This document shows positions 10,141 through 43,891 of a stretch of 48,945 nt of DNA, one piece after another. The notes under the pieces were generated by a model that worked only from the letters and a program-made list of their open reading frames with translations, was not told the DNA's origin and did no database searches. The DNA comes from a virus: IMG/VR virus record IMGVR_UViG_3300042402_003082, positions 1-48,945 of that record; one strand, written 5' to 3'. The first letter of the stretch is position 1. Each line of letters begins with the position of its first letter. Position numbers and translations under genes: made by a program.

Positions 10141-11490
10141 ATGTCTCAAATTGTTACTCGTAGCATCGTCACCCCCGATAATTCTCCCGTGTCGTTTCCT
10201 TATGGCATCAATATCGGCACACCGAACGGCAGCGGCATCAACGACATTGGCATCGCCGGTCAAGCCGGCTTCGGTGTCGGGATTTGCCCTTCCGCCTTGC
10301 CGGCTGGCATGACAGAGTTATCTGGCACACAAGATCGTTTTCACGATAACTACGGCAATTACCAATACAGCGACGGCAGTATCATGGTCTGGATGCCGGC
10401 TTTCTTCTACAAATACGGCACCGGCAGCAATGGCCTGGCACTCAATGAGGTGGATATTGAGCCGTTCGGCTATTTTGCTGATGTAGCCACCGCCAATTCT
10501 GCGGGCTATGCCTTGCATCGCGCCTTCTATGATGGCGGCGTGATTCAGCCGGGGGCGTTCGTCGATAAATACTTGGTCAGCAATAACGGCGGCATTGCCT
10601 CAAGCGTGAAGAATGGCATTGCACTAGCCTCTGCCGTGCGCGGCGGTATTGCTGCATCGGCGTTTGCTTCGCTGACCGGCGCACCCGCTAACACCTTGGG
10701 CGGCGCGGTTGCTGTTGCAAAGACGCGCGGCGTGAACTTCTTTGTGTCGAGTCGCTTTATTTTTGCTGCCTTGGCCTTGCTCAGCTATGCGCACGGCAAA
10801 GCCTCAACCAGCACCACACATTGCGCCTGGTACCATGCCACCAATAATTTCCCGAAGGGCAACAACAACAACGCACTGGGTGATGCTCAGGACGCATCAA
10901 TCGCTTACATTTGGGATGGCAATTCAGCTTATTTAGGCTGCGGCAGAACCGGCAGCGCCAACTTCTTCGCCCGCACGACACACAACGGCCAAAACTGCGG
11001 CGTGGCTGATTTGAATGGCGTGGTGTGGGAGCAAACCCCCGGTATCACGCACGATGGCACCAACCTGTATATCCTGAAACCCGCTGTCAGCATGAAAAAC
11101 GTGACGGGCGGGAACTCATTAGCGACCGACCTATACGGCGCAACGGGCATTACTGCACTGTATAACAGCCTCGGCACTAGCTACGAGAGCCTGACCGGCA
11201 GCAATACGAATAAGGTCTTTGGCAATAATAGCAATCAAGTGCTAAGTGCTGCGACCTCAGGCAATGGCTGGAATTTTGCCGGGGCGGGCTTGCCGCTTGC
11301 GCTGGGCGTAGGCGGTAGCAATGCCTTCGGTAATGATTACGCGCTCGACTACAAGCCGAATGAACTGGCTCCGATCTCGGGTGGTGGCTGGAACGACTCG
11401 TCGTACGCGGGTGTTTGGTCGTTCATTCTGGACAACACTCGCGCGAACTCCGGCGCTAACATTGGTTGCCGCTCCGCCTTGTACTTGTAA
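10141..11490 (+). CDS. DGR target protein with C-terminal C-type-lectin variable domain
   Basis: 449 residues; RBS AAGGAAATT precedes the ATG. The N-terminal half is probably beta-rich and structural; the C-terminal half has the formylglycine-enzyme/C-type-lectin signature of DGR variable proteins (for example GVADLNGVVWEQ and the terminal GGGWNDSS, GVWSF and NIGCRS motifs). The last 43 residues are encoded by the VR plus five codons. Compared with the TR, eight codons give a new amino acid (Gly, Asp, Tyr, Ile, Asp, Gly, Ala, Ala). By analogy with Mtd of Bordetella phage it is likely the receptor-binding protein at the tail tip, diversified to switch host receptors (family knowledge plus context). 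Confidence 0.93.
   Translation: MSQIVTRSIVTPDNSPVSFPYGINIGTPNGSGINDIGIAGQAGFGVGICPSALPAGMTELSGTQDRFHDNYGNYQYSDGSIMVWMPAFFYKYGTGSNGLALNEVDIEPFGYFADVATANSAGYALHRAFYDGGVIQPGAFVDKYLVSNNGGIASSVKNGIALASAVRGGIAASAFASLTGAPANTLGGAVAVAKTRGVNFFVSSRFIFAALALLSYAHGKASTSTTHCAWYHATNNFPKGNNNNALGDAQDASIAYIWDGNSAYLGCGRTGSANFFARTTHNGQNCGVADLNGVVWEQTPGITHDGTNLYILKPAVSMKNVTGGNSLATDLYGATGITALYNSLGTSYESLTGSNTNKVFGNNSNQVLSAATSGNGWNFAGAGLPLALGVGGSNAFGNDYALDYKPNELAPISGGGWNDSSYAGVWSFILDNTRANSGANIGCRSALYL
11366..11479 (+). repeat. DGR variable repeat (VR)
   Basis: 114 bp, matching the TR at 11971-12084 (constant offset 605) except at 11 positions: 11386, 11387, 11395, 11404, 11409, 11426, 11431, 11452, 11453, 11456 and 11477. 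Each is A in the TR and G, T or C here. The last 20 bases before the final substitution (11457-11476) are identical to the TR and GC-rich toward the end, as expected of the initiation-of-mutagenic-homing segment. Confidence 0.97.
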
Positions 11491-11498
11491 CCATGTCA

Positions 11499-11516
11499 GT
11501 GCGGCGATAGCCGCAC
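11499..11516 (+). promoter_or_regulatory. Post-VR hairpin/cruciform (DGR target recognition)
   Basis: Perfect 7-bp inverted repeat GTGCGGC/GCCGCAC closed by a GATA tetraloop, 20 bp behind the end of the VR and 9 bp behind the target-gene stop. In Bordetella phage BPP-1 a hairpin of this size with a GRNA-type tetraloop downstream of the VR is required for efficient retrohoming; GATA fits that loop. There is no U tract, so it is not a good terminator. Confidence 0.75.
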
Positions 11517-11520
11517 ATTA

Positions 11521-11547
11521 ACTGCAAACACTGCAAACACTGCAAAC
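11521..11547 (+). repeat. Three perfect 9-bp tandem repeats
   Basis: ACTGCAAAC occurs three times in direct succession, ending one base before the avd start codon. It occupies the position where a ribosome-binding site would be expected; no Shine-Dalgarno sequence is visible there. Confidence 0.95.
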
Positions 11548-11548
11548 T

Positions 11549-11968
11549 ATGAACACTAATGCTGAAGCCGAGCTAAATCGAAAGTTTATTGAGACTGCGC
11601 AACTGATGAATGTTTACCTCAACCACTTCCCCGCGTTCGAGAAATACGCGCTCGCGCAGCATATCCGCGTGTGCATGTATGACGTTTACGGGTTGATCGT
11701 GGAGAGTCAAAAGCGTTACATCAAAAAAACAACGCTCAATAACTTAGATATACGCCATGAGCAGTGGCGCATGATGATTAATCTGGCGATGGAATTAGGC
11801 TATTTTGCATTTAAGGACGGCAGGGAAAGTGATGAATCGCCTAAGACATTGGCGCAACACCGCCACCTGGCGATCTCGCGGTTGATTGACGAATTAGGGC
11901 GCATGATCGGCGGCTGGTTGGTTGCCGTGCGTGAGTCTGAAAAGAGTGGTACACGGGAAACGTCTTAA
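11549..11968 (+). CDS. avd: DGR accessory variability determinant (Avd)
   Basis: 139 residues, four-helix-bundle pattern of the Avd/S23-like family: basic, helical, with conserved aromatic and Arg positions (FAF-type FPAFEKYALAQHIR, later RHLAISRLIDELGRMIGGWL). Avd assembles as a barrel-shaped pentamer that binds the reverse transcriptase and the TR RNA and is needed for mutagenic cDNA synthesis. It sits between VR and TR, the canonical order VR-avd-TR-RT. There is no clear RBS, since the 9-bp tandem repeats fill that space. The stop codon ends two bases before the TR. Confidence 0.92.
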   Translation: MNTNAEAELNRKFIETAQLMNVYLNHFPAFEKYALAQHIRVCMYDVYGLIVESQKRYIKKTTLNNLDIRHEQWRMMINLAMELGYFAFKDGRESDESPKTLAQHRHLAISRLIDELGRMIGGWLVAVRESEKSGTRETS

Positions 11969-11970
11969 TA

Positions 11971-12084
11971 TGGCTCCGATCTCGGGTGGTAACTGGAACA
12001 ACTCGTCGAACGCAGGTGTTTGGTCGTTCAATCTGAACAACACTCGCGCGAACTCCAACGATAACATTGGTTGCCGCTCCGACT
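11971..12084 (+). repeat. DGR template repeat (TR)
   Basis: 114-bp donor copy of the VR containing 26 adenines; 11 of these are substituted in the VR and no non-adenine base differs. Read in the target frame it is enriched in AAC/AAT codons (ten), the codon choice that gives maximum amino-acid variation without stop codons under adenine mutagenesis. It is transcribed with avd and the RT; the RNA with its flank to about 12220 serves as template and primer. The downstream flank contains a small hairpin (GCAGG/CCTGC, 12140-12157). Confidence 0.97.
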
Positions 12085-12220
12085 CTGCTTCACCTCATAA
12101 CCGGCAACGGTATAGTGGAACAAAGGGAGACGTTTTCCGGCAGGGGTTAAATCCTGCGAAATCGGTTTGCATGGGCCATTCTAGTAGGTCTGAGTTTGTC
12201 ATTCTCGAAAGTCTGGCCCT

Positions 12221-13312
12221 ATGAAGCGCATCGGCTATCTCTTTGAGCAGGCGTTTACCCGCGAAGGGTTACTCGCAGCGTTTCATGCCGCCGCCAAGGG
12301 TAAGCGGAAAAAACGCGCCTGTTTTAATTTTGAGCGCCGGCTTGCCCACAATTTAGATCGTCTATATGACGCGCTGCACGATGGCAGCTATACACCACAA
12401 CCCTATTACAGTTTCACCGTGTATGAGCCGAAAAAACGGCAGATATACGCCCCGGCATTTGCTGATTTGGTTGTGCAACATGCCATTTACGCGGTCACAC
12501 TGCCAATTTTTAACCCATCATTTATCGACCAATCGTTTGCGTGCCGGCCCGGTAAGGGAACGCACAAAGCCGCGCACTTTGCGCAGCGTGCGCTGCAACT
12601 GAGCGCCGCCGATAGCTACACGCTGAAGCTAGATATTCGCAAGTTTTTCTATCGAATTGACCGCACGATTTTGCGCAGGTTGATTGCGCATAAGATTAAA
12701 GATCATCGCTTTGTCGATTTAATGATGTTATTCGCAGAATACGGCGAACCCGTGGGTATTCCTATCGGCAACCTGCTCTCGCAGATGTATGCGCTCATTT
12801 ACCTAAACCCACTTGACCACTTTGTTAAACGTGAACTCAAGGTGCGGCTGTATTGCCGCTATGTTGATGACTCGGTGCTGTTTGGGCTGCCGCGAGAGCG
12901 GGCGTTGTCGCATCTCGCCCGCGTGGGCTGCTTTATCCAACAGCAACTCAATCTCGAATTCTCGAAAACCACTTTAGCGACCACCCGGCGCGGCGTGAAT
13001 TTTGTTGGGTATCGCGCCTGGGCGTCTCGCCGTTTTATCCGCAAGCATTCGATTTACACATTCCGCCGCCGCGCAAAGCAGGGGCGGCTTGAATCGTGCG
13101 TGTCTGTATTGGGTCACGCACGCCACACCCACTCCCTGCAGCATCTGCTGCGCTATCTGAAAGGAAATCACCATGTCTTATTTTGTCAGCTACCAAAAAT
13201 CTATCAGCGCAAGCGCCTCACGCGAACTCAAATTGCCGACCAACGCGCAGCACCAAGCCATCGGCACGGAACTCTGCACACTGGCGGGGGTGACTTACGT
13301 CTCGTTGCCTAA
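12221..13312 (+). CDS. DGR reverse transcriptase
   Basis: 363 residues in this frame. RT motifs in order: RPGKGTHKA (109-117), LDIRKFFYRID (137-147), GIPIGNLLSQ (179-188, the DGR/retron-type SQ motif in place of QG), catalytic YVDD (214-217), and GVNFVGYR (258-265). It copies the TR RNA into cDNA with errors at adenines. The ATG is not preceded by a strong RBS. The last 46 or so residues overlap the next gene in another frame, are Arg/His-rich and do not resemble the family, so the ancestral C-terminus probably ended near residue 317. Confidence 0.95.
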   Translation: MKRIGYLFEQAFTREGLLAAFHAAAKGKRKKRACFNFERRLAHNLDRLYDALHDGSYTPQPYYSFTVYEPKKRQIYAPAFADLVVQHAIYAVTLPIFNPSFIDQSFACRPGKGTHKAAHFAQRALQLSAADSYTLKLDIRKFFYRIDRTILRRLIAHKIKDHRFVDLMMLFAEYGEPVGIPIGNLLSQMYALIYLNPLDHFVKRELKVRLYCRYVDDSVLFGLPRERALSHLARVGCFIQQQLNLEFSKTTLATTRRGVNFVGYRAWASRRFIRKHSIYTFRRRAKQGRLESCVSVLGHARHTHSLQHLLRYLKGNHHVLFCQLPKIYQRKRLTRTQIADQRAAPSHRHGTLHTGGGDLRLVA

Positions 13313-13592
13313 TGATGCCGTGTTGCCGGCAGACCAATACGCCGAAGTGGTTGCCAGCATCGTCAACCCCTGCGTGCCGGACGCCGCGCTGCTTGCCGAC
13401 ATCAAAGCTGCTTCGCCGCACGTCGCCCTGATTAATGCGAATGTCGCACGCCAAATTGCTGAGCGTTACAGCACCGGCGATGAAATCAAGCTACTGCGCA
13501 CCGCGCCCTCCGAAGAGTTCGATGTGTACAACGATTTTGTCGAGTCGTGCCGCGCCTGGGGCCGCGCGCAGAAAGCGGCTTTCGGGCTGTGA
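13173..13592 (+). CDS. Hypothetical protein downstream of DGR RT
   Basis: 139 residues. The start is supported by GAAAGGA 7-9 bp upstream although it lies 140 bp inside the RT frame. Soluble, mixed alpha/beta composition; no motif recognised. It could be a further tail/fibre assembly factor or a DGR-associated gene by position only. Confidence 0.7.
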   Translation: MSYFVSYQKSISASASRELKLPTNAQHQAIGTELCTLAGVTYVSLPNDAVLPADQYAEVVASIVNPCVPDAALLADIKAASPHVALINANVARQIAERYSTGDEIKLLRTAPSEEFDVYNDFVESCRAWGRAQKAAFGL

Positions 13593-14131: not shown

Positions 14132-15124
14132 ATGGCAACAATTCGCAAACGGGGCGACACTTGGCAGTGTATGATTCGCAAGGTTGGGCATCCGCCTGTC
14201 TCTGCGTCGTTTGATACAAAAGCTGAGGCGGAGCGCTGGGCCTTGAAGACCGAGGCAACAATGCTTGATGGAGCCGTAGAGGTGCAGGATGCCAGCACAA
14301 CGGTGCGTCAATTGTTTGAAGAGTATCGGGATAAGGTCTCGGTAACTAAACGTGGCGCACGTTGGGAAGTTATCCGAATTAACAGGCTCTTGGAAACTTC
14401 ACATTTTGTCAATAAGAGGCTGGTTAGAGTCAGCCCATCCGATATACAAGCCTGGCGAGATCTCCGCTTGAAGAGCGTTTCTGGCGAGACGGTAAACCGC
14501 GAGATGAACCAGATCAGTGCCATCTTTACCTATGCACGCAAGGAGTGGCGCATGGGGGTGCATAACCCGGTGCGCGAGGTTAAGCGGCCAAGCAAGAATC
14601 CTGCCCGCACCCGAAGACCCTCTGCAGATGAGACGAGCGCCTTGCTCAAGTACTTCAACTTCGATGCTAACGTGCCACCTAAAACCACGCTGGATTATCT
14701 TGGTTGGTTGATTGAGTGTGCGCAACATATTCCCATGCGTCGCGGGGAGTGGTGCAACGTGCTCTGGGAAGACGCCCACCTTCAGGAGCAGTGGCTGCAC
14801 TTGCGCTTGACCAAGAATGGGGAGAGTCGAGATGTACCCTTGTCGAAGTACATTAGTGCCCTACTTGACAAATTGCCTCGCTCTGATAAGCGCATGTTCC
14901 CGATCAATCCAGATACGGTAACTATTTATTTTTCAGAGGCGTGTAAAGAATTGGGGATAGATAATCTTCACTTACACGACTTTAGACATGAGGCGATTAC
15001 CCGGATTGCAGAAGTGACCCGAGATGCGTTAGAGCTGAGTGCATTTTCAGGGCATAAAGACTTGAAAGCCTTGAAGCGATACTACAACCCCAAGGCTTCC
15101 GATCTGGCTAAGAAGTTGAACTAA
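14132..15124 (+). CDS. int: Tyrosine site-specific integrase
   Basis: 330 residues. The N-terminal arm-binding region begins with a RKRGDTWQ pattern typical of phage integrases, followed by a SAM-like core-binding domain (about 55-140) and the catalytic domain: Arg in PMRRGEW (203/204), Lys in TKNGESR (228), HxxR in LHDFRHEA (282-285), His in SGHKD (308) and the nucleophile Tyr at 317/318 (KRYYNP). All catalytic positions are present. Full family length. It carries out phage integration and, with a directionality factor, excision; the converging HTH gene at 15180 is the likely partner. Confidence 0.93.
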   Translation: MATIRKRGDTWQCMIRKVGHPPVSASFDTKAEAERWALKTEATMLDGAVEVQDASTTVRQLFEEYRDKVSVTKRGARWEVIRINRLLETSHFVNKRLVRVSPSDIQAWRDLRLKSVSGETVNREMNQISAIFTYARKEWRMGVHNPVREVKRPSKNPARTRRPSADETSALLKYFNFDANVPPKTTLDYLGWLIECAQHIPMRRGEWCNVLWEDAHLQEQWLHLRLTKNGESRDVPLSKYISALLDKLPRSDKRMFPINPDTVTIYFSEACKELGIDNLHLHDFRHEAITRIAEVTRDALELSAFSGHKDLKALKRYYNPKASDLAKKLN

Positions 15125-23163: not shown

Positions 23164-23952
23164 CTACGCTGCCTTCTTTTCGGCCTCTGGTACCAATTGA
23201 CGCACAGCTTGCAGGTTCCATTTAAGGTTGTAACCTGACTTGTTGCCGACTTGCCAGTGATGACGGATGCAGAACTTGGCTCCCTTTGCGGTCGGTGTCC
23301 AAACGCCGTCAACACGCTCTTGCAAGCCTACTGCCTCCAGTGCGGGGTTGATCTTGTTGCGGCTGTAACCCAGTGCAGCACCTAACTCAGTGGGCTCAAG
23401 CATAACCTCCTCCGCTTGAATGTCGTTTTGAGCAGGTGCGAGTAGCAGGAAGGGAGAGAAGTCTACGCCAGTAGTCAGGCGGACCTGCTTGATTGACTCG
23501 GTTTGGGCAAGGTGGGTAGGTACTGCAAGTAGCTTGGCAACATCCAGAAAGCACTCAAGCGAGACCTTGGCTTGCTGAACAGGGAGCATAGGTTCGGCAG
23601 GGGTACGTGACTGCTGAACTGCAGGTGATACATACGAACCAGTCTTGCGGATAGTCGGCAGTATCTCTTCAAACACCAAACGCTCAAATGCTTGAGCAGC
23701 AGGCAATGTACTGCCAACCATCAGGCGCATAACATCAGGCTCAGTCAAGACTCGTAACTGCTGCATTCCACCTGTTGTTTGAAGGGGATAACGAATCGTT
23801 ACCCCCTTACAATGGTCGTTCATCGCTTTACTCGGGTTGGCGTAGCCAAGTGCCTCGCAGATGTCTTTTCCCACAAATAACGGTTCCCCGTTTTCATCAG
23901 TTACAACACGGATAGCTACATTTTCAAACTGGAACGGCATAACTTCATTCAT
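23164..23952 (-). CDS. Phage antirepressor-like regulator (BRO-N domain)
   Basis: 262 residues. Residues 1-115 are a BRO/Ant N-terminal domain (FVGKDICEALGYANPSKAM, then GGMQQLRVLTEPDVMRLM, then FERLVFEEILPTIRKTG). The C-terminal half has a second helical DNA-binding-like domain (EPTELGAALGYSRNKINPAL). BRO-N proteins bind DNA or repressors and act in lysogeny/lysis switching. It has its own promoter (P3) and a long structured leader. No CI-type repressor is in the window. Confidence 0.88.
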   Translation of the reverse strand: MNEVMPFQFENVAIRVVTDENGEPLFVGKDICEALGYANPSKAMNDHCKGVTIRYPLQTTGGMQQLRVLTEPDVMRLMVGSTLPAAQAFERLVFEEILPTIRKTGSYVSPAVQQSRTPAEPMLPVQQAKVSLECFLDVAKLLAVPTHLAQTESIKQVRLTTGVDFSPFLLLAPAQNDIQAEEVMLEPTELGAALGYSRNKINPALEAVGLQERVDGVWTPTAKGAKFCIRHHWQVGNKSGYNLKWNLQAVRQLVPEAEKKAA

Positions 23953-36965: not shown

Positions 36966-37315
36966 ACAGCCAAAGCCATGCAGCGCTCACGCTCTGTGTA
37001 AGCCGCTTGAATAACGTCAGCTTTATTCATCACCCCCCAATTCGTGCGCAACTCCGCCGCTTGAATATAGCGGGTGAGGAGTTCAACCTGACTCAGGTTG
37101 TTTGCCCTAATATACTCAGGGGCAAATGACCCAATCCCTTTCAAATAAGCGATCTCGTCGGAGGTTTGCCGCTGTGCCGGTGGCTTTACCTTTTTTACAA
37201 CTTGAGTCACTTCAACCACAGGGGTTTTAGGTTCAGGTTCCTTTTCCTCCTCTTGATAGACTTCCATGTAGAAGACATCAGCAGGGTCGAGTTTATCGTT
37301 AGATTTCACATACAC
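36962..37315 (-). CDS. Hypothetical protein downstream of ribonucleotide reductase
   Basis: 117 residues from a GTG overlapping the reductase stop by 17 bp. N-terminal half acidic and Pro/Lys-rich (EEEKEPEPKTP), C-terminal half helical. Function unknown; coupling to nrdJ hints at a reductase-linked role. Start uncertain. Confidence 0.65.
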   Translation of the reverse strand: MYVKSNDKLDPADVFYMEVYQEEEKEPEPKTPVVEVTQVVKKVKPPAQRQTSDEIAYLKGIGSFAPEYIRANNLSQVELLTRYIQAAELRTNWGVMNKADVIQAAYTERERCMALAV

Positions 37316-39734
37316 CCCCTACGCAAGCTAAGGTTTGTGATCCCTCGGTGTTGTCCTCTTCTTCAGACAACTCTGACCAATCTATCGACTTTACTTCCTG
37401 CTCTACTAGCTGCTCATATCGCTCTTTGGTAATGTCCTCATAAGGCGCTTGCTGATATGTGTGGTCTGAGAAGGGAAGAAAACTCACACCGCTCATTTCA
37501 TCAAAATGTTTATAAACCCAAGCTCCGACTTCAAGCCACTCGTCATCCTTAACACTCACTGTTACAGAGGGTTTATGCTCGCACCAGTGTCTTTGATACA
37601 CTAACCATAGTTCAAGCTGCTCCAAGGCCGTCTTGTCCTTTCGACATACGGCTCCTGTCGGAGATTTCATAGCGAAGGAGAAGACAGCAGTAGAACCTGG
37701 CCGCATGAGGTCATCTCGAACATGAACTCCCTTGTCTGCTAGGAATTTATAAGCAGGGTCCTTTTTATCCATCCGAATTCTTCGGATGTAGTAAGGGTTA
37801 TGTCGGGCATGGATTCCGCTAGCGGAGTCCACTAATTGCGATACGGTGCCACTCGGTTTTACGCAAGTGATTGCCGCAGATTCCGGAATTCCCAACTTCT
37901 CTGCCCATACCTTATTGACCTCTCTGGCGTAGTCTCTGAGATGCTCAAGAAGAGGTTTTAACATCTCATGGTTATGGTTAAGCAGGCTGTTATCCATAAT
38001 CCCGGTGAGGGAGACACCCAGCAGCCTTTCATCTTGGGTGTTGTGCTTCCACTCCTCAGAGACAAAGTGGAAGTCCACCAAGGTGGATTGGATAGTTCCT
38101 AAGATTGTAGCCAGCTTGACCTTGCGCTCCAAGTCTTCTGGTAGGTCACCTTGACGCACAACAACTTCACTGAGGTTACAGAACTGTTTATCCCTTAGGA
38201 TGATCTCGGAATTATGAACAAGAATTCCTCGACTCTCCACAGCTTTCTCATCGAAAGACTTAGTGATAATGTAGAAGTTTTCATTATCCTCTACTTGTAG
38301 GTCATAAATTTCCCGCTCTCCTAGAGAGGTTAGGGACACCACATGGACTGGGTCAGTTAGGTGGGTGTGGGACTTAACAACTACAGAGTTTATCTTTCTG
38401 TACTTGTTTTTAGCTGTATAGAACCTTGCTAGATCAACACCGACACTTTGAAGTACAGGCACATACTCACCCCGCGAGGTAGCCAGAGGGTGATCTCCAG
38501 TTGCCTCAAAAGTATCTCCGTTAGAGAGGGTGACACAATAAACTTCCTTCACTCCAGTGGGCTTGGCAATTGCAGTTTTTACCTCGGTCTTCCAGTGCTT
38601 GAAGATTCCTGACTCATTCTGCTGGTTTTTAGTGCGTGAAGAACGTGCAGAGTAGACAGGGAAGGGCTTGACCCCATTACTCTCCAAGGCAAGCTGCTTG
38701 ATGGGTACTGCATTTCTGCCATCCGCCACCGCGACAAGTGTATCTCCGGTAAAACAGCACGGGTTGGTTCCGTAGTTTAGTGTGGGATTTCTCCTGTCCC
38801 ACTTAGCCGCTTGTTTCTGGCTGGCTTCTCGATTGAAGATGCCTCGCTCGCCGGACTTGCTTTTGATCAGGGTGAGCCACTCTTCCATGAAGATTTCCAT
38901 TTCTGGTTTCTCCGTGTAAGCTACTGAGTTGTTAGCCAAGCCACGCTGCGCGTTAGAGGTCCACCACTGACCCACTTTCGCTTCAGCCATCCGCCGATCA
39001 GATAAGTTACTAAGAGATATTAAGGCGCTTCTGCGTACACCTCCTACAACAACTACCTCGCCTATCTGACACATGAGGTCGTGGACCTCAATTGATTTGA
39101 GTTTGCGTCCTGCAGCTCCAGTAAGAATTTGGACTGTGAACTCAACTAATTTCCTTAATGGTTCGGGACCAGAAGCCCTTCCACCAAAAGTTTTAAGTCT
39201 AGCTCCTTCTTTTCTCACCTTGCTGTAGTCAACTCTGGGTATGTCGCCTTCCCACAAGGAAGAGATCAGCTTCTTGTAGGCTTTGGCCCACCCCAACTTG
39301 CTATCGGCGACTACGATGGTGTCTTCGACCTCTTTGAAAGAGGGTGGCAAACTAGGAAGATGCACGATCTCTTGTCGCTCACAAGAAAATCCAACCCCTG
39401 TCCCGTTCATCAGGATATACAACGCTTCACTAAAAGCTCGCTTGTTGTTCACCGCAAGGTAAGAGCAATTGTATGCGCTGATATTATCCACTTCGCAAGC
39501 GGGGCCTGCGGTCATCATCAACCGCATACTGGGCATGACTTCCTTGTGCAAAATAGCGTCACGTAGCTCTGTCTTACTGCCCTCATCCAACGCTACACCT
39601 ACCTTTGAGTCTAGATACGTGATGAGGCGGTCTACCGTCTCATCCCAGTTTTCTCTCCGGTTCTCATTTTGTAGAAACCTTGCGTAGCGGGACTTGTGAA
39701 TAATCTCAGAGTAAACCTGACTATTACCGCTCAT
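37299..39734 (-). CDS. nrdJ: Adenosylcobalamin-dependent (class II) ribonucleotide reductase with intein
   Basis: 811-residue precursor; about 629 residues after splicing. Converts ribonucleotides to deoxyribonucleotides using B12. RTPR-type features: SAYNCSYLAV, GTGVGFSCER, GRASGPEPL, VVVGGVRRSALIS, catalytic-loop NPC (324-326), VKPSGTVSQLVDSASG and the C-terminal redox Cys pair in CVGGVCEI. A mini-intein (residues 327-508) lies directly behind the active-site Cys. The ATG overlaps the upstream 98-residue gene. The phage depends on host cobalamin. Confidence 0.94.
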   Translation of the reverse strand: MSGNSQVYSEIIHKSRYARFLQNENRRENWDETVDRLITYLDSKVGVALDEGSKTELRDAILHKEVMPSMRLMMTAGPACEVDNISAYNCSYLAVNNKRAFSEALYILMNGTGVGFSCERQEIVHLPSLPPSFKEVEDTIVVADSKLGWAKAYKKLISSLWEGDIPRVDYSKVRKEGARLKTFGGRASGPEPLRKLVEFTVQILTGAAGRKLKSIEVHDLMCQIGEVVVVGGVRRSALISLSNLSDRRMAEAKVGQWWTSNAQRGLANNSVAYTEKPEMEIFMEEWLTLIKSKSGERGIFNREASQKQAAKWDRRNPTLNYGTNPCCFTGDTLVAVADGRNAVPIKQLALESNGVKPFPVYSARSSRTKNQQNESGIFKHWKTEVKTAIAKPTGVKEVYCVTLSNGDTFEATGDHPLATSRGEYVPVLQSVGVDLARFYTAKNKYRKINSVVVKSHTHLTDPVHVVSLTSLGEREIYDLQVEDNENFYIITKSFDEKAVESRGILVHNSEIILRDKQFCNLSEVVVRQGDLPEDLERKVKLATILGTIQSTLVDFHFVSEEWKHNTQDERLLGVSLTGIMDNSLLNHNHEMLKPLLEHLRDYAREVNKVWAEKLGIPESAAITCVKPSGTVSQLVDSASGIHARHNPYYIRRIRMDKKDPAYKFLADKGVHVRDDLMRPGSTAVFSFAMKSPTGAVCRKDKTALEQLELWLVYQRHWCEHKPSVTVSVKDDEWLEVGAWVYKHFDEMSGVSFLPFSDHTYQQAPYEDITKERYEQLVEQEVKSIDWSELSEEEDNTEGSQTLACVGGVCEI
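38211..38756 (-). other. Mini-intein inside nrdJ
   Basis: 182 residues, Cys327 to Asn508 of the precursor, followed by Ser509 as the +1 extein residue. Block A CFTGDTLV, block B CVTLSNGDTFEATGDHPL (with the TxxH motif), block F EIYDLQVEDNENFYI and block G GILVHN are all present. No endonuclease domain, so it splices but cannot home by itself. Ligation would restore NPC-SEIILRDKQFC, the uninterrupted reductase active site. Confidence 0.93.
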
Positions 39735-43333: not shown

Positions 43334-43360
43334 AATAGTCCTCACATCAAATTTTGTCTA
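43332..43360 (-). promoter_or_regulatory. Promoter-family motif merged with a start codon
   Basis: TAGACA (43355-43360, overlapping the ArdA stop), 17 bp ending AGGAC, TATTAT (43332-43337); the last T begins no separate leader, because TATTATG contains the ATG at 43331-43333. Likely acts as RBS/start rather than as promoter for this gene. Confidence 0.45.
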
Positions 43361-43891
43361 CTGGCTGAATATGTAACCTGTACCATCATCTCGAACATAG
43401 TCCGAGATGAACAGGTCTCGACAATAAGCCTCATAATCAAAATAGTACACTAACTCCTTTGGCATATTGGCAAGCATACCGGTGTCTTCGACGATCTGGT
43501 ACGTGAAGTCTAACTCGGACCCTTCTCGACCTGCATGCTGTTCCTTGCAGGATTCAATATCGGTCTCAAAATCATCACAGCCAAGCCCAAGCCGCATGAA
43601 TGCTCCGTACATCTCCTTCTCATCGTCATCCAAGTCCAGCCAGAGCCACGCATCCTCCTTAATGAAGGACTCACCTACCATGCCCCGTGGAAAGCCTTGA
43701 AAGTCTTGGAACATGAACTCTGGGTCAACCTCATCGTCATGGAACTCCGCAAGTGCCTCGTAGAAGGTCTCCTTGTCGGAGTAATCTTCCAGGTCAAACC
43801 AGGCTCCTGCTAAGGAGCCGTTGTTGTACTTCTTATATGTACCTACATAAATCCTGGGTGTTGTTTTGTACTCTGTGCTATAGTTGCTCAT
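43358..43891 (-). CDS. ardA: ArdA-type antirestriction protein
   Basis: 177 residues. ArdA-like layout: PRIYVGTYKKYNNGSLAGAW at the start, an Asp/Glu-rich middle (DLDDDEKEM), and the family ending LVYYFDYEAYCRDL. ArdA is an elongated DNA mimic that inhibits type I restriction enzymes. Full family length. Start overlaps the stop of the 258-residue gene (ATGA). It protects incoming phage DNA and marks this region as anti-defence. Confidence 0.85.
   Translation of the reverse strand: MSNYSTEYKTTPRIYVGTYKKYNNGSLAGAWFDLEDYSDKETFYEALAEFHDDEVDPEFMFQDFQGFPRGMVGESFIKEDAWLWLDLDDDEKEMYGAFMRLGLGCDDFETDIESCKEQHAGREGSELDFTYQIVEDTGMLANMPKELVYYFDYEAYCRDLFISDYVRDDGTGYIFSQ

What the first reader, a model, noticed from the sequence alone, without database searches (positions are those of the whole stretch)
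10141..13312. Complete diversity-generating retroelement on a tail module
VR, Avd, TR and RT occur in canonical order. Over 114 bp VR and TR differ at 11 sites and all 11 are adenines in the TR (11 of 26 adenines changed, no other base). Eight amino acids of the C-type-lectin domain are altered. This is direct evidence of past adenine-specific mutagenic homing into the presumed receptor-binding protein, and the system looks intact.
Basis: partly seen in the sequence, partly recalled or inferred. Interest (0 to 1): 0.85.

Follow-up and report, generated by a model that had tools for sequence, protein, structure and literature searches.

The report
Phage tail-tip gene diversifier (DGR)
This virus of bacteria carries a complete, textbook diversity-generating retroelement that rewrites the tip of its presumed host-binding tail protein; the find is real and well supported by close relatives caught with freshly varied tips, but it is a new member of a well-known kind of system.

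Summary
VR 11366-11479 and TR 11971-12084 differ at 11 of 114 sites, all adenine in TR (chance about 1e-8). All parts of a BPP-1-type DGR are present and in order: target, hairpin with GRNA loop, Avd, TR, conserved spacer RNA, RT with IGNxxSQ and YVDD. The modelled target best matches the DGR variable protein TaqVP (C-type-lectin fold), then Mtd.

Correction: one of the 11 sites (VR C11477 / TR A12082) is not a mutagenesis product. It is C in VR and A in TR in all 78 related VR/TR pairs examined, so it belongs to the fixed IMH/IMH* difference. That leaves 10 of 25 adenines and 7 amino acids.

In the window phage itself only past activity is shown, and receptor binding is inferred.

Also seen: target tip plus DGR swaps between phages as one block, and about one family member in ten has lost the DGR. 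New member of a known kind.

The parts
10141..11490 (+). Target protein, 449 aa, presumed receptor-binding tail-tip protein; C-terminal VR in a C-type-lectin (FGE/SUMF-like) fold
   Evidence: Model pLDDT 78.9, pTM 0.83; Foldseek best PDB match TaqVP 5vf4, E 1.7e-12, then the five Mtd variants; profile match to 5vf4, E 1.4e-5, whose third segment aligns the two VRs; PHROG tail protein, weak
11366..11479 (+). Variable repeat (VR)
   Evidence: 10 mutagenised sites plus the fixed IMH difference at 11477
11460..11487 (+). IMH region at the 3' end of VR (approximate); encodes the invariant C-terminus ..GCRSALYL
   Evidence: VR C at 11477 against TR A at 12082 in all 78 related pairs
11499..11516 (+). 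Hairpin/cruciform downstream of VR: 7-bp stem, GATA loop (fits GRNA), 19 nt after VR
   Evidence: a stem of 7 bp or more with a GRNA loop occurs in about 0.2% of random 70-nt stretches of these loci; matches Guo et al. PMC3240598
11549..11968 (+). avd, accessory variability determinant, 139 aa
   Evidence: PF22296 E 1.4e-14, NF033474 E 4e-17 (below its cut-off), phrog_3206 E 5.9e-18
11970..12084 (+). Template repeat (TR), starting 1 nt after the avd stop codon; mostly AAC/AAT codons
12082..12226 (+). Spacer RNA between TR and RT (Sp-like); conserved and covarying; no Rfam match
12221..13312 (+). DGR reverse transcriptase; conserved part ends near 13171 and the last ~45 codons run into the next gene
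   Evidence: phrog_1423 E 2.7e-98; BPP-1 bRT 8ub7 E 5e-50; IGNLLSQ and YVDD; relatives' ORFs 317-362 aa
13173..13592 (+). Conserved 139-aa ORF of unknown function after RT; exchanged with the block but kept when the DGR is lost

Best explanation
A complete BPP-1-type diversity-generating retroelement in a tailed phage. The TR-spacer RNA is copied by the RT-Avd complex with random insertion opposite template adenines. The cDNA replaces the VR at the 3' end of the target gene, directed by the IMH/IMH* difference and the downstream hairpin, so that exposed residues of a C-type-lectin tail-tip protein vary while TR stays unchanged. Shown here: all parts, past adenine-specific change in this phage, and recent adenine-specific change in close relatives. 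Inferred: the biochemical steps (from BPP-1), that the element is still active in this phage, and that the varied surface binds the host receptor.
For: Adenine-only differences, P about 1e-8. 78 family pairs: 1155 of 2047 TR adenines changed against 43 of about 6,971 other bases. Six phages with no difference outside VR over about 3.7 kb carry 21 polymorphic VR sites, 20 of them TR adenines, with identical TRs; further clusters with identical flanks (L049/L050/L054, L093/L094, L139/L141/L142). RT, Avd and target identities. Hairpin. Covarying spacer RNA. Same gene order as BPP-1; the same scan recovers the annotated BPP-1 VR/TR.
Against: No near-identical sister of the window phage was found (nearest is L041, 87% over 6.2 kb), so its own recent activity is not shown. 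About one family member in ten has lost TR and/or RT, so an intact look does not guarantee use. Avd scores below NCBIfam's equivalog cut-off.
Confidence: 0.96

Rival explanations
1. A DGR that worked in the past but is now silent or damaged in this phage, its VR a frozen relic.
For: Lower adenine conversion than the family mean (10 of 25, 40%, against 56%); loss of TR/RT is frequent in relatives.
Against: RT, Avd, TR, spacer RNA and hairpin are all intact and conserved; no non-adenine difference has accumulated between VR and TR, although it would in a frozen copy.
Confidence: 0.08
2. An ordinary duplicated segment that diverged by point mutation.
For: Two similar copies exist.
Against: 11 of 11 differences on one base (P about 1e-8), one-way (TR constant, VR variable), with RT and Avd alongside.
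Confidence: 0.005
3. A reverse transcriptase of another class (group II intron, retron, defence RT) lying next to a repeat by chance.
For: NCBIfam reports weak group II, Drt and retron hits.
Against: All those hits are far below their cut-offs; best matches are the DGR RT family and BPP-1 bRT; IGNLLSQ motif; Avd, TR and VR conserved with it in dozens of loci.
Confidence: 0.005

Closest known systems
Bordetella phage BPP-1 DGR (mtd-avd-TR-brt)
   Same: Gene order, RT (38% identical), Avd position, adenine-only VR/TR differences, IMH-type 3' difference, GRNA hairpin, C-type-lectin target in the tail module
   Different: Avd only 21% identical; target closer to TaqVP than to Mtd; spacer RNA not found in BPP-1 by the family model
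Pseudomonas phage Bise DGR (OR683401)
   Same: Closest cultured relative found: RT 61.5% identical, Avd 53%, VR/TR with adenine-only differences, the same CCT/ACT junction, spacer RNA match E 4.5e-10
   Different: Annotated only as 'reverse transcriptase family protein' and 'four helix bundle protein'; different phage background
Uncultivated-phage DGRs of IMG/VR loci L038-L158
   Same: Same target, Avd, TR and RT family; at least 78 VR/TR pairs
   Different: Target proteins 55-74% identical to the window's; some lack the DGR
TaqVP, variable protein of a Thermus aquaticus prophage DGR (5VF4, PMC6328139)
   Same: Best structural and profile match of the target, VR aligned to VR
   Different: 17-18% identity; other host and phage

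Membership tests
Diversity-generating retroelement (BPP-1 type) | VR/TR pair differing at TR adenines only | tested here: met
   11 of 11, P about 1e-8
Diversity-generating retroelement (BPP-1 type) | RT of the DGR class with catalytic motif | tested here: met
   phrog_1423, BPP-1 bRT best PDB match, IGNLLSQ, YVDD
Diversity-generating retroelement (BPP-1 type) | Avd accessory protein | tested here: met
   PF22296 above its cut-off, phrog_3206; NCBIfam NF033474 matched but below its cut-off
Diversity-generating retroelement (BPP-1 type) | IMH in VR differing from IMH* in TR | tested here: met
   C/A at the junction in 78 of 78 related pairs; sequences diverge right after it
Diversity-generating retroelement (BPP-1 type) | GC-rich hairpin with GRNA loop 4-34 bp after VR (PMC3240598) | tested here: met
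   7 bp, GATA loop, 19 nt after VR
Diversity-generating retroelement (BPP-1 type) | Structured spacer RNA between TR and RT | tested here: met
   Covariation score 0.503 against 0.160 shuffled and at most 0.087 slid; role in priming not tested
Diversity-generating retroelement (BPP-1 type) | C-type-lectin fold carrying VR | tested here: met
   Predicted model only; sequence profile match to TaqVP
Diversity-generating retroelement (BPP-1 type) | Mutagenic homing changes VR, not TR, in a population | tested here: inconclusive
   Met in relatives with identical flanks; no sister genomes of the window phage to test it there
Phage receptor-binding protein | Binds a host receptor | not testable with these tools
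   Position in the tail module and fold only

The most novel reading that the evidence does not exclude
In this phage family the hypervariable tip and its DGR behave as one exchangeable and dispensable unit. Recombination swaps target C-terminus, avd, TR, RT and the following ORF together between phages with near-identical neighbouring genes, and repeated loss of TR/RT (clean loss, replacement by an HNH-like gene, avd-RT deletions) leaves the tip without its template, so phages would alternate between diversifying and fixed tropism. The spacer RNA defines a structured RNA family absent from Rfam 15.
Probability: 0.4. Interest if true: 0.45.

Novelty: new member of a known kind. Interest (0 to 1): 0.3.

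Why it matters
It adds a well-documented member to the phage DGRs and shows, from public contigs alone, that the adenine-specific change is recent in relatives. The collection of intact, varied and DGR-less relatives is a natural series for asking what a phage gains or loses by keeping a diversifier, and the covarying spacer RNA gives a testable structure outside BPP-1.

Tried and rejected
A viral-contig scan for the window's own TR/VR with adenines free found no sister phage. A 25-mer scan in the spacer found only the L038/L039/L041 group and L084. Rfam found nothing at gathering score in the whole window or at E up to 1 in 11480-12300. Pfam does not recognise the target or any of 28 relatives. 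The single-sequence RNA fold of the spacer is unremarkable (z -0.22); only the alignment shows structure. The first target model (28 sequences) was poor (pLDDT 56) and was replaced by one with 44 sequences. The spacer model did not match BPP-1 or distant DGRs. L084 was listed as a target without TR only because its TR was read as a target C-terminus. Counts of VR/TR pairs include a few near-identical contigs, and its end-trimming favours adenine mismatches slightly; one search used neutral scoring and gave the same picture.

Full report
What was checked. The window is a virus record of 48,945 bases. The chance that 11 of 11 differences fall on the 26 adenines is 1.2e-8. The repeat occurs nowhere else in the record. 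The three genes are open and of the stated extent. The upstream 2,896-aa gene is a tape-measure protein, so 'on a tail module' holds.

Parts. Avd (11549-11968) matches Pfam bAvd, PHROG Avd and, below its strict cut-off, NCBIfam Avd. RT (12221-13312) matches the DGR RT PHROG at 2.7e-98 and, among solved structures, BPP-1 bRT far ahead of group II intron RTs (5e-50 against 2e-21); it has IGNLLSQ and YVDD. Its last codons overlap the next gene by 140 nt, and at 363 aa it is longer than the relatives' ORFs, 317-362 aa, so the tail end is probably not conserved sequence. A hairpin with a 7-bp stem and a GATA loop lies at 11499-11516, as Guo et al. (PMC3240598) describe for phage DGRs (7-10 bp stems, GRNA loops, 4-34 bp from VR).

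Target. Pfam does not know it. A profile of 28 relatives finds one protein in the PDB, 5VF4 (E 1.4e-5), and aligns VR to VR; that is TaqVP, the variable protein of a Thermus aquaticus prophage DGR (PMC6328139). A model from 44 sequences (pLDDT 78.9, pTM 0.83) has TaqVP as its best match (E 1.7e-12), followed by all five Mtd variants. Many viral matches are called tail collar fiber proteins. The C-type-lectin fold is thus well supported by prediction and homology, not by a solved structure.

The correction. Aligning the 3' ends of related pairs shows that right after the shared sequence VR reads CCTTGTA.. and TR ACTC... It has this state in all 78 pairs, 77 as CCT/ACT and one as CCT/ACC, including phages whose other VR adenines differ freely, and in Pseudomonas phage Bise. 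It is therefore part of the IMH/IMH* difference that sets the direction of transfer, not a product of mutagenesis. Ten of 25 adenines remain, changing seven residues.

Activity. In relatives it can. Six contigs from different metagenomes (L044-L048, L078) show no difference over about 3.7 kb outside VR until one diverges at the far end, have identical TRs, and yet have 21 polymorphic VR sites, 20 of them at TR adenines. L049/L050/L054, L093/L094 and L139/L141/L142 show the same with up to 19 differences and identical flanks over about 2 kb. Over 78 pairs 56% of TR adenines are changed against 0.6% of other bases. This agrees with the broad DGR activity reported by Roux et al. (PMC8144416).

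Spacer RNA. The ~145 nt between TR and RT are conserved through the family. An RNAalifold structure of 28 pairs has 14 with changes on both sides; 94.6% of cells pair, against 76.4% shuffled and at most 49.4% slid; covariation 0.503 against 0.160 and at most 0.087. One helix is a hairpin, often with a GNRA loop, whose stem changes freely. The model finds Bise (E 4.5e-10) but not BPP-1, and Rfam has no match. In BPP-1 the spacer folds, recruits RT-Avd and primes cDNA synthesis (PMC12875486); the same role is inferred here.

Evolution of the block. The window is identical to L041 and L072 from 10500 to about 10604, inside the target gene (92-100% to L041 over the preceding kilobases, apart from one 200-base bin at 88%), then falls to about 65%; identity to L038 returns near 13552, at the end of the ORF after RT. 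So the target's tip, the DGR and the following ORF appear to have been exchanged together. Among 70 family loci with enough downstream sequence, 8 lack a detectable TR (leaving out L084): clean absence in L061 and L155, replacement of TR and RT by an HNH-like gene in L052 and L063, avd-RT deletions in L040 and L145, a remnant in L090, and the outlier L077. Some may be assembly faults, but the forms differ and the next ORF is kept in all but L077.

Verdict. A genuine, complete, canonical DGR; reader supported, with one site reassigned. New member of a known kind.

Noticed in passing
window 10605-13551 against L041, L072, L038: Sharp crossover inside the target gene and return of identity after RT: target tip, DGR and next ORF exchanged as one block.
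   Followed up: partly
L052 6420-7160, L063 4540-5300: TR and RT replaced by a reverse-strand gene resembling phage HNH-type proteins (named by eye, not searched), at different points within avd.
   Followed up: partly
L060, L061, L155 against L057: Target followed directly by the next ORF, with avd-TR-RT absent; L060 and L061 are 93-98% identical to the DGR carrier L057.
   Followed up: partly
window 37299-39734, - strand: Ribonucleotide reductase apparently interrupted by a mini-intein (CFTGDT ... VHN/S).
   Followed up: no
window 11521-11547: Tandem copies of a 9-bp repeat ACTGCAAAC between the hairpin and avd.
   Followed up: no
L015 4518-4928: avd with one in-frame stop codon beside an otherwise normal DGR.
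   Followed up: no
window 14132-15124, 43358-43891, 23164-23952: Tyrosine integrase after the DGR, an anti-restriction protein and a BRO-N protein.
   Followed up: no
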